From an uncultured Bacteroidia bacterium (GTDB lineage Bacteria > Bacteroidota > Bacteroidia > Bacteroidales > UBA932): DNA of 51,616 nt. This document shows positions 6,518 through 42,773 of this stretch, piece after piece. The DNA is taken from the NCBI GenBank assembly GCA_902782225.1, contig CACZMF010000016.1, positions 1-51,616 on the forward strand, in the 5' to 3' direction. The notes under the pieces are model-generated. The model ran no database searches. It had not been told where the DNA came from and saw nothing but the letters and a program-made list of their open reading frames with translations. Numbering within the stretch: position 1 is the first letter of the stretch; each line of letters opens with the position of its first letter. A program made the translations under genes and the position numbers.

Positions 6518-6558
6518 AATAATAACGGTGCGGCTTTCTGGTCCGCGCCGTTATTATT
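6518..6558 (+). terminator. Intrinsic terminator after nifJ
   Basis: A 16-bp stem (left arm 6518-6533, right arm 6543-6558, one G-T pair) around a 9-nt loop. The right arm ends in TTATTATT, giving an A-rich 5' base and U-rich 3' base. It begins 48 nt after the nifJ stop codon. The symmetry would let it work in both directions. Confidence 0.85.
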
Positions 6559-40392: not shown

Positions 40393-41592
40393 ATGACCAC
40401 AAATTTTCTCAACGACACTTCAAGCAAGAACGCCCAGATCAAAAGAGCGATTCTGAAGCTGTGTATCAGCCACGAGGAATCCAGCATATCATACTTCAGC
40501 AAAACGCTGGGAATCAGCGTGCCCACCATCACCAAACTGATCAGCGAACTGATCGATTCCGGCTTCCTGCTCGATGAAGGCAAAATCGGCACATCCGGCG
40601 GCCGAAGGCCAAGCATCTACGGTCTCGACCCCAACGCCGGCTATTTCGTGGGCATAGACGTGGCCCGGCACCACTTCCATATCGCCATCACCGACTTCAA
40701 GGGCAACCTGCTCCGCTACATTGAAGACATCGAATTCGTCCTGGAATCCAACGCCGGCTCCTTCAGGGAAATGTGCCGCATGGTGAAGGACCATGTCGTA
40801 TCGGCAGGCATACCATGGATAAAGGTACTGTCGGCTGGCGTGAGCCTCTCCGGCCGCGTGAATCCCGAGCAGGGCTATTCGCTGACCTACTTCGTCAGCG
40901 ACGACCTACCCCTCAAGGATCTGTTCCAGAGGGAGTTGAACGTGCCCGTGAGCATCGAGAACGACTCCCGCGCCCTGACCTACGGCGAGTACATGTACCT
41001 CGGCAAGAACGCCGACAAGGACATGATCGCCATCAACCTCAGCTGGGGTCTCGGCATGGGCATGATCCTGAACGGCCAGCTCTACTACGGCAAATCGGGC
41101 TTCTCCGGCGAAATCGGTCACTTCCCCTTCCTGGACAACGACATCATGTGCCGTTGCGGCAAGGTGGGTTGCCTGGAGACGGGTGCTTCAGGCTCTGCGC
41201 TGCACCGCATGATAATCGAGAAGCTCAAGGCCGGCCGCCGCTCTTCCCTGTCTTCGACCTACAAGGAAACAGGCGGAATCGAACTCTCCGACATCCTTGG
41301 CGCCGTGAAAGACGGCGACGTGCTGGCAATCGAGTGCATAGGCGAAATCGGCGAGACTCTCGGCCGCGGTATCTCCGGCATAATCAACATCTTCAACCCC
41401 GGCCTGGTGATCATCGGCGGCCGTCTCATCGTGGGCCGGGAGCACCTGCTGCTCCCCATCCGCACGGCCGTGAACAAGCTTTCAATGGAAAGAGTCGCAT
41501 CCGATACCAAGATACGACTCTCCACTCTCGGGCGCAAGGCAATCGTCCTCGGCAACTGCCTGCTGGCCCGCAAGAAACTGCTGGGAATCTAA
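40393..41592 (+). CDS. ROK-family transcriptional regulator
   Basis: 399 residues. An N-terminal winged helix-turn-helix (about 14-75: ISYFSKTLGISVPTITKLISELIDSGFLL) is joined to a ROK sugar-kinase-like domain. The domain retains NDSRALTYGEY (Asp191, the kinase base position), GEIGH (239-243) and the zinc site His243 with Cys253, Cys255 and Cys260 in CRCGKVGC. This matches NagC/Mlc/XylR-type sugar-responsive repressors; the inducing sugar is unknown. Since the kinase residues remain, weak kinase activity is conceivable. It is divergent from the sensor-trkH genes (73 bp apart), so may control them or itself. Its stop codon overlaps the convergent rfbB stop by 4 nt. Confidence 0.92.
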   Translation: MTTNFLNDTSSKNAQIKRAILKLCISHEESSISYFSKTLGISVPTITKLISELIDSGFLLDEGKIGTSGGRRPSIYGLDPNAGYFVGIDVARHHFHIAITDFKGNLLRYIEDIEFVLESNAGSFREMCRMVKDHVVSAGIPWIKVLSAGVSLSGRVNPEQGYSLTYFVSDDLPLKDLFQRELNVPVSIENDSRALTYGEYMYLGKNADKDMIAINLSWGLGMGMILNGQLYYGKSGFSGEIGHFPFLDNDIMCRCGKVGCLETGASGSALHRMIIEKLKAGRRSSLSSTYKETGGIELSDILGAVKDGDVLAIECIGEIGETLGRGISGIINIFNPGLVIIGGRLIVGREHLLLPIRTAVNKLSMERVASDTKIRLSTLGRKAIVLGNCLLARKKLLGI

Positions 41593-42773
41593 CGCCCCTT
41601 GTACATGTCTTCGTAGTACTTCTGGTAGTCGCCGGAAGTCACGTTGTCCATCCAGTCCTGGTTGTCCAGATACCAGCGGACAGTCTTTTCTATGCCCTCC
41701 TCAAACTGAAGCGAAGGCTCCCAGCCGAGCTCCCTCTGAAGCTTGGTAGAATCGATCGCATAGCGCAGGTCGTGTCCGGCGCGGTCGGTCACGAAGGTGA
41801 TGAGGTCCATGTCGGCACCTTCCGGCCGCCCGAGAAGACGGTCCACGGTGGCAATCAGGACCTTGATGATATCGATGTTCTTCCACTCGTTGAAACCGCC
41901 GATATTGTAGGTCTCGGCGACCTTGCCTTTATGGAAGATGAGGTCGATGGCGCGCGCATGGTCCTCCACGTAGAGCCAGTCCCGCACATTCTCGCCCGTC
42001 CCATATACCGGCAGCGGCTTACGATGACGTATATTGTTGATAAACAGCGGAATCAGCTTCTCCGGGAACTGGTAGGGCCCGTAATTGTTCGAACAGTTGG
42101 TCACTATCGTGGGCATCCCGAAAGTATCGTGGAAAGCCCGCACGAAATGGTCGCTGCTGGCCTTGGCGGCGCTGTAGGGGCTATGCGGCTGGTACTTCGT
42201 CTCTTCGGTGAAGAGCGTGCCGTCCATCTCCAGCGCCCCGTACACCTCATCGGTCGAAATGTGGTAGAAGCGGCACTGGACGGAGGAGGCACTGTCCTCT
42301 GAGACCGTCGCTTCGCGACCCCTCCCTAAAGGGCCCCTCCCTCTTATGGTGCCGAGGGTGGCACAGGTCTCAGAGGACAGTGCCTCCTCCGTCCGTTTCA
42401 TCACCCAGCCCATCGGTTCCCAATAGGCCTTGGCGGCCTGGAGCAGGGAGAGAGTGCCCATAACGTTCGTCTGGGCGAAGGTAAACGGATCCTTGATACT
42501 GCGGTCCACGTGCGACTCGGCCGCAAGATGGATGATGCCGTCCACGTGCTCCTCCTGCATGAGCTTCAGCACCCCCTCGAAATCGCAGATGTCCATCTTC
42601 ACGAAACGATAATTGGGCTTGTCTTCTATATCCTTGAGATTCGCAAGGTTACCAGCATACGTGAGCTTATCGAGGTTGATAATCCGGTAGTCCGGATACT
42701 TGTTGACGAAAAGGCGCACCACGTGCGACCCTATGAAGCCGGCACCGCCGGTGATGATGATAGTGCGTTTCAT
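41589..42773 (-). CDS. rfbB: dTDP-glucose 4,6-dehydratase with 39-residue in-frame insertion
   Basis: 394 residues of an extended SDR that converts dTDP-glucose to dTDP-4-keto-6-deoxyglucose for rhamnose synthesis. GGAGFIG (9-15) binds NAD; STDEVYG (173-179) and Tyr200/Lys204 in YSAAK make the active site; the C-terminal LYVEDHARAID and TYNIGG blocks are complete. Residues 127-165 are foreign: they are translated from a 117-bp palindromic element at 42278-42394. Without them the chain would be 355 residues, the normal size, and would read smoothly MGWVMK-QCRFYHISTDEVYG. The insert lies in the loop just before the strand leading to the catalytic Thr-Asp-Glu, so the enzyme may still fold. It is the last gene of the polysaccharide locus. 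Confidence 0.93.
   Translation of the reverse strand: MKRTIIITGGAGFIGSHVVRLFVNKYPDYRIINLDKLTYAGNLANLKDIEDKPNYRFVKMDICDFEGVLKLMQEEHVDGIIHLAAESHVDRSIKDPFTFAQTNVMGTLSLLQAAKAYWEPMGWVMKRTEEALSSETCATLGTIRGRGPLGRGREATVSEDSASSVQCRFYHISTDEVYGALEMDGTLFTEETKYQPHSPYSAAKASSDHFVRAFHDTFGMPTIVTNCSNNYGPYQFPEKLIPLFINNIRHRKPLPVYGTGENVRDWLYVEDHARAIDLIFHKGKVAETYNIGGFNEWKNIDIIKVLIATVDRLLGRPEGADMDLITFVTDRAGHDLRYAIDSTKLQRELGWEPSLQFEEGIEKTVRWYLDNQDWMDNVTSGDYQKYYEDMYKGR
42278..42394. mobile_element. 117-bp palindromic element inserted in rfbB
   Basis: Perfect 29-bp terminal inverted repeats (42278-42306 and 42366-42394; outer bases ggacggaggagg.../...cctcctccgtcc). The 59-bp core contains three further hairpins: gtcgc-ttc-gcgac (42307-42319), ccct-aa-aggg (42324-42333) and gtgcc-gagggt-ggcac (42349-42364), giving a cloverleaf-like fold. 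The length is exactly 39 codons and no stop is created in the rfbB frame. It splits a CAG codon after its first base. No target duplication is visible. It resembles in logic the Rickettsia palindromic elements that sit in frame within genes. Confidence 0.85.

What the first reader, a model, noticed from the sequence alone, without database searches (positions are those of the whole stretch)
42278..42394. A 117-bp palindromic element lives in frame inside rfbB and is translated
Seen: perfect 29-bp terminal inverted repeats, three nested hairpins in the core, exact length of 39 codons, no stop in the rfbB frame, and a smooth family-like protein when it is removed (355 residues, MGWVMK-QCRFYH). 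Known: Rickettsia palindromic elements are the classic case of in-frame coding insertions. Inference: this lineage carries a comparable protein-tolerant repeat family, which may spread through genes by a hairpin-acting transposase. It may also act on the rfbB mRNA, since a 29-bp stem in the transcript could stall ribosomes or invite RNase III in a surface-polysaccharide operon.
Basis: partly seen in the sequence, partly recalled or inferred. Interest (0 to 1): 0.85.

Follow-up and report, generated by a model that had tools for sequence, protein, structure and literature searches.

The report
Translated mobile palindrome inside rfbB
A small hairpin-shaped mobile DNA piece sits inside a sugar-making gene of a gut bacterium without breaking its reading frame; similar pieces are scattered through related genomes, and the two sides of their long stem change fast while staying matched to each other.

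Summary
Confirmed and extended. Window 42278-42394 is a 117-bp element in frame in rfbB: 29-bp perfect inverted arms around a 59-nt core. It belongs to a repeat family: 12 places in this genome; 20 of 61 genomes, own included, all in its genus; core motif in 14 of 199 genomes of the family and 0 of 394 others sampled from the phylum. Of 39 copies with a closely spanning homologue, 36 are in frame and open; 3 lie at gene ends. It works like Rickettsia palindromic elements. New: cores are conserved but arms are hypervariable, yet self-complementary within copies (92.0% paired against 34.8% when re-dealt, 116 of 153 copies). At shared sites the core is inverted in 20 of 41 non-independent pairs, cleanly in two; compensated arm changes exceed chance (12 against 1.3, 11 of them in two pairs). 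Best explanation: a MITE-like element kept in frame by selection, its arms copied from each other by template switching. In some copies one arm may be native target DNA. The mobilising enzyme is unknown.

The parts
41589..42773 (-). rfbB (dTDP-glucose 4,6-dehydratase), 394 aa with the insert
   Evidence: ORF; Pfam GDP_Man_Dehyd and Epimerase; PDB dTDP-glucose 4,6-dehydratases
42278..42394 (.). whole palindromic element (117 bp, 39 codons in the rfbB frame)
   Evidence: related copies
42278..42306 (+). core-left arm, 29 bp, copy-specific sequence
   Evidence: arm statistics
42307..42365 (+). conserved core, 59 nt, shared with other copies
42307..42319 (+). core hairpin P1 (GTCGC-TTC-GCGAC)
42324..42333 (+). 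core hairpin P2 (CCC-TAAA-GGG), variable in length and sequence between copies
42339..42362 (+). family signature CCCTCTTANNNNGCCGAGGGTGGC, the most conserved stretch
42349..42364 (+). possible core hairpin P3 (GTGCC-GAGGGT-GGCAC), with paired changes in other copies; the predicted minimum-energy fold pairs CCCTC with GAGGG instead
42366..42394 (+). core-right arm, reverse complement of the core-left arm

Best explanation
This is one copy of a family of small non-autonomous mobile palindromes (MITE-like, working like Rickettsia palindromic elements) in one family of mostly ruminant-gut Bacteroidales. Shown: a multi-copy family; genic copies keep the reading frame and are open, so they should be translated as an extra loop (translation itself not shown); in RfbB the loop lies between the helix ending in YW and the strand RFYHISTDEVYG; in several genes the whole arm-core-arm is the extra segment. 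Inferred: an enzyme acting in trans moves it, probably as a folded strand, and selection removes frame-breaking insertions. Inferred from paired changes and core inversions: after insertion the two arms are repeatedly copied from each other by DNA-polymerase template switching (or arm-arm recombination), which keeps the stem paired while its sequence drifts fast and inverts the core as a by-product.
For: Multi-copy family. In frame: 38 of 39 copies with a closely spanning homologue keep frame, 36 of 39 are also open; the 3 exceptions lie at gene ends (my reading). Whole-element insertion: distance between outer arm ends in the empty gene is 0 or -3 nt for L163, +6 for L121, +6 for L211, +3 or -3 for rfbB against L044, L046, L047, L048 (alignments of L163, L121 and L211). 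Arm pairing 0.920 within copies against 0.348 (maximum 0.379 of 200 deals) re-dealt, 116 of 153 parsed copies. Compensated double changes: 12 observed, simulated mean 1.32, maximum 6, in 5 same-site pairs (on counts). Core inverted between conserved arms and flanks in L128/L151 and L036/L142. A second family in the same RfbB loop: pairing 0.88 within copies, 0.57 between species; 11 of 15 scored copies in one genome perfectly paired although the outer arm varies. Template switching is reported to homogenise inverted-repeat arms and invert spacers (PMC8604942, abstract) and to create and maintain hairpin stems (PMC8794818, abstract and opening).
Against: No mobilising enzyme and no consistent target-site duplication found. 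In other genes the empty homologue has about one arm's length between the arm ends (L205 +18, L198 +24, TsaB L010 +33, L166 +42), and two lie the other way (L118 -15, L143 -36), so one arm may be native in some copies. G530 copies with similar cores have quite different outer arms, faster than slow drift plus correction suggests. 11 of the 12 compensated changes come from two pairs (L115/L149, L193/L206); L172/L187 and L142/L036 show none; 5 of 9 eligible pairs were used. 14 of the 41 same-site pairs come from one gene site, and the 32 pairs without clearly homologous arms could be separate insertions at a hotspot. 37 of 153 copies were under the arm-score cut-off or duplicates, and 8 of 11 copies in G605 have poor arms. 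Unpaired core bases are conserved at shared sites, which template switching alone does not explain, though copies were chosen by the core motif.
Confidence: 0.67

Rival explanations
1. Arms are kept paired by purifying selection on the folded RNA or DNA (for transposition, mRNA stability or protection), not by a copying mechanism.
For: At shared sites core hairpins change in pairs and unpaired core bases are kept; RNAalifold finds both-sides changes in 8 of 18 pairs, all 8 in the outer stem.
Against: Selection does not predict inversion of the core between conserved arms and flanks. Arm sequence differs widely between copies, and copies lie in unrelated genes with no evident shared function.
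Confidence: 0.25
2. The outer part of the arms is an inverted duplication of target DNA made at insertion (fold-back priming: the inserted strand snaps back on its inner arm and copies the flank).
For: In G530 the inner part of the arms (about 18 nt, judged by eye) is alike between copies while the outer 10-20 nt are locus-specific and inverted. In L205, L198, TsaB and L166 the empty homologue has roughly one arm's length of native sequence between the arm ends (+18 to +42 nt). In 4 of 9 genic copies with an empty homologue the outer-arm residues on the coding-left side resemble native residues (z > 1), against 0 of 9 on the right.
Against: Small sample, diverged homologues, and no side preference relative to the core (2 of 9 each). 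L163, L121, L211 and rfbB leave no room for a native arm. Arm consensus extends over about 25 nt in the pooled set, and the second family's outer arms still share letters between copies.
Confidence: 0.27
3. A REPIN-type element moved by a resident RAYT (Y1/HUH transposase).
For: Y1 domain genes in 46 of 61 genomes of the genus and 27 of 40 of genus g210; carriers have them more often (18 of 20 against 9 of 17; element-rich 15 of 16 against 12 of 24).
Against: G012 (one weak match), G014 and G683 carry the element without a Y1 match, though these genomes are 70-87% complete. 0 of 24 sampled Y1 loci (16 in known carriers) have the core in the held flanks. Genome size, completeness and kinship confound the test.
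Confidence: 0.3
4. The segment is removed from the mRNA (intron-like) or bypassed by the ribosome.
For: Stable hairpin inside coding sequence.
Against: The 36 clearly genic copies keep frame and lack stops, in at least five different frames, which excision would not require.
Confidence: 0.04

Closest known systems
Rickettsia palindromic elements (RPE) and Wolbachia palindromic elements
   Same: 105-146 bp (RPE), long stem-loops, found between genes and in frame inside conserved protein genes (passages of PMC2229807, and PMC10969869)
   Different: Different phylum; the table in PMC2229807 gives RPE 12 bp of contiguous paired terminal repeat against 29 bp here; arms hypervariable around a conserved core; core inversion at shared sites. 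Sequence homology to RPE was not tested
MITEs such as Correia/NEMIS, ERIC, YPAL/RU-2
   Same: Small non-autonomous repeats, some fused in frame to genes (passages)
   Different: No target-site duplication or parent IS found here
REP/REPIN elements with RAYT transposases
   Same: Hairpin repeats; Y1 transposases in most genomes searched
   Different: Longer than REPs; no linkage to sampled Y1 genes
Template-switch mutation at inverted repeats
   Same: Arm homogenisation and spacer inversion in coding DNA (PMC8604942, abstract)
   Different: Described for inverted repeats in yeast genes; here it would act on a mobile family

Membership tests
Rickettsia palindromic element | roughly 100-150 bp palindrome, multi-copy, intergenic and genic | tested here: met
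   (lengths vary, some longer)
Rickettsia palindromic element | in-frame, open insertion in conserved protein genes | tested here: met
   36 of 39 spanning copies; 3 others at gene ends
Rickettsia palindromic element | sequence homology to a known RPE family and occurrence in Rickettsiales | tested here: inconclusive
MITE | terminal inverted repeats | tested here: met
MITE | target-site duplication | tested here: inconclusive
   no consistent duplication seen by eye; homologues too diverged
MITE | ends shared with an autonomous IS | not tested
   no autonomous partner was sought beyond Y1 genes
REPIN/RAYT | repeats of the family flank a RAYT gene | tested here: not met
   0 of 24 sampled Y1 loci, 16 in known carriers; other Y1 loci not examined
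Known RNA family (Rfam 15) | match above gathering score | tested here: not met
   window 42100-42600 only: 11 matches, all below their family's gathering score, mostly microRNA hairpins

The most novel reading that the evidence does not exclude
A transposition mode in which a conserved hairpin core is inserted and part of its stem is written anew at each site by fold-back copying of flanking target DNA, giving an inverted rather than direct target duplication, in frame inside conserved genes; more than one palindrome family would use it and share the same protein-loop hotspots.
Probability: 0.2. Interest if true: 0.88.

Novelty: new variant of a known kind. Interest (0 to 1): 0.66.

Why it matters
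Protein-coding palindromes are best known from Rickettsia and Wolbachia. Here a gut Bacteroidales lineage with many sequenced species carries them, about a dozen to a dozen and a half motif copies in the richest genomes counted, so how they move, how proteins tolerate them and how their stems stay paired become testable by comparison. The core inversions and paired arm changes may be a natural record of template switching inside coding genes, and a caution that covariation in a hairpin need not mean selected RNA function.

Tried and rejected
First hypothesis, that both arms simply copy the target, was dropped for the copies whose empty homologue leaves no room for an arm (L163, L121, L211, rfbB) and because pooled arms share a consensus; a form of it for the outer arm is kept as a rival. 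Pairwise alignments at intergenic sites were uninformative. Viral contigs: 0 exact motif hits. Rfam: nothing above threshold. Y1 linkage: none in the sample. Literature: searches (0 papers) listed no paper whose title or abstract start describes in-frame palindromes in Bacteroidales, but two listed papers on Porphyromonas gingivalis repeats (PMC4596501, PMC5771137) and one on tagged palindromes (PMC3733652) were not read, and the library lacks most subscription journals, so absence is not shown.

Changes made on checking: empty-site distances that fit one native arm (L205, L198, TsaB, L166) had been left out; with them the fold-back rival rises from 0.20 to 0.27, the novel case from 0.17 to 0.20, and the main explanation falls from 0.70 to 0.67.

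Full report
Observation. The window holds a 117-bp element at 42278-42394 inside rfbB (minus-strand ORF 41589-42773, 394 aa). Its 29-nt arms are perfectly complementary with 59 nt between them, the only perfect pair among 8 found under the settings. It folds at -89.3 kcal/mol, z = -10.65. The three core hairpins stand side by side on the stem. The protein matches solved dTDP-glucose 4,6-dehydratases on both sides of the insert; the two alignments shown break off at query residues 119 and 124 and resume at 168 and 166.

A repeat family. The 117-bp query gives 13 matches in this genome: 12 places, two of them neighbours on contig C21 and some partial, plus the palindrome's own antisense match. 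11 carry the exact core motif. A 63-bp core query matches 20 of 61 genomes, own included: 20 of the 37 in the genus and none of 24 from other families of the order. A slightly looser motif occurs in 14 of 199 genomes of the family, own included, in 3 of 25 genera. The exact motif occurs in 0 of 394 other genomes sampled from the phylum and in no viral contig.

In-frame insertion. From the fetched loci 153 distinct motif-bearing copies were parsed. For each, the two flanks were compared separately with ORFs of other loci, without asking for a common frame. 39 of 153 had a homologue spanning the site closely on both sides, 3 had one that aligned too far away, and 111 had none. Of the 39, 38 keep the frame and 36 are also free of stops. 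The three others (L148, L176, L214) lie at gene ends by my reading. The copies are not all independent: 13 of the 36 were judged against a homologue with at most 19 residues in the gap, 23 against one with 26-45 residues there, several of which carry a copy at the same site. The 36 use both orientations and at least five frames (29 assigned, 7 ambiguous). Host genes include RfbB, TsaB (Pfam TsaD family) and a glycine dehydrogenase subunit; native homologues of other host genes match LytB and glycosyltransferase 2, and below the curated cut-off a SAM methyltransferase and CYTH.

What is inserted. The distance between the outer arm ends, measured in homologues without the element, is 0 or -3 nt for L163, +6 for L121, +6 for L211, and +3 or -3 for rfbB against four orthologues: there both arms belong to the insert. 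It is +18 for L205, +24 for L198, +33 for TsaB (L010) and +42 for L166, about one arm's length, so one arm may be native there; and -15 for L118 and -36 for L143.

Hypervariable arms that stay paired. Pooled right arms show a weak consensus over about 25 nt, and arm ends cluster at a similar distance from the core (116 copies). Within copies the arms pair at 92.0% of 24 positions; arms re-dealt among copies pair at 34.8% (200 deals, maximum 37.9%). Copies were chosen by arm score, which favours pairing within copies, but the contrast with other copies' arms stands. Ten copies of this genome average 41% arm identity (shuffled 26%), while six of them have near-identical cores (L001-L006). In G530, 13 of 18 copies have arm scores of 27 or more; by eye the inner part is alike and the outer part locus-specific. 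In G605, 8 of 11 copies score under 14.

Shared sites. 41 pairs of copies share both flanks: 21 with the core in the same orientation, 20 inverted (160 copies; 14 of the 41 pairs from what looks like one gene site). Nine pairs have arms more alike than 99% of random pairs; 5 of these 9 are inverted. The other 32 could be separate insertions at a hotspot. In L128/L151 and L036/L142 flanks and arms align continuously and only the core is reversed; L014/L145, L031/L124 and L143/L191 are less clean. Of 13 alignments made, five pairs with homologous arms entered the test: 12 compensated double changes against a simulated mean of 1.32. Six are in L115/L149, five in L193/L206, one in L151/L128; L172/L187 and L142/L036 have none. 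L170/L211 (arms nearly unchanged) was left out and three eligible pairs were not counted. The core of L115/L149 also has a paired P3 change that alters two amino acids (M to I, T to R), so pairing was kept at the cost of the protein sequence.

The RfbB loop is a hotspot. It holds this element in L001, L132 and G530 (L275/L298), a second palindrome family in eight genomes of genus g210, and other repeat peptides in L045 and L055 and L311 and L322. The second family's motif occurs in 12 of 40 genomes, 21 times in G688, and its arms behave alike: 0.88 paired within 9 copies, 0.57 between species; in G688, 11 of 15 scored copies are perfectly paired.

Mechanism. Shown: multi-copy family, frame conservation, covarying arms, inverted cores. 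Inferred: transposition by an unknown enzyme; purifying selection on frame; arm copying by template switching, which published work links to arm homogenisation and spacer inversion (PMC8604942) and to creation and upkeep of stems (PMC8794818; abstracts read). Unexplained: how copies with near-identical cores have quite different outer arms. A weak lead is that outer-arm residues on the coding-left side look native in 4 of 9 genic copies against 0 of 9 on the right (the nine include two RfbB copies and two at another shared site).

Known context. RPEs share size, palindromy and in-frame genic insertion (PMC2229807 and PMC10969869, passages). This family works like an RPE; sequence membership was not established. 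Y1 transposases co-occur loosely and are not linked to copies in the 24 loci sampled.

Noticed in passing
L299, L300, L301, L304, L307, L309, L310, L316 (RfbB loop) and L340-L357 (G688): A second palindrome family (core CGGAGTTTTTGCGGG...GCCGTAGCGG) sits in the same RfbB loop in eight genomes and its motif occurs 21 times in one genome; L307 carries it twice in tandem.
   Followed up: partly
L045 and L055, L311, L322 (RfbB loop): Other translated repeat peptides (CHSERSEESRSEES, HCEESEGRRGNL, PGQAGND, PDQVGGD) occupy the same RfbB loop in other species.
   Followed up: no
L010, L161, L083, L084 (TsaB loop): The TsaB loop hosts this element in two species with opposite core orientation, and what look like two other palindromic inserts in two more.
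   Followed up: partly
L008/L011 (G000 contig C21, about 25.6-25.85 kb): A rearranged tandem pair of the element lies in an open frame resembling a polygalacturonase (name from recall); its arms do not score as a simple stem.
   Followed up: no
L121, L152, L166, L205: Outer-arm residues on the upstream coding side resemble the native protein, hinting that the downstream arm may be an inverted copy of upstream target DNA.
   Followed up: partly
window 6518-6558: A 16-bp inverted repeat, 94% complementary with a 9-nt loop; possibly a terminator or another small repeat.
   Followed up: no
genomes G530, G605, G590, G545, G462: The variable P3 bases of the core tend to be uniform within a genome but differ between genomes (CAGT in 16 of 18 G530 copies, TGGT in 5 of 5 in G590, CGGA in 4 of 4 in G462; G605 is mixed), suggesting lineage-specific bursts.
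   Followed up: partly
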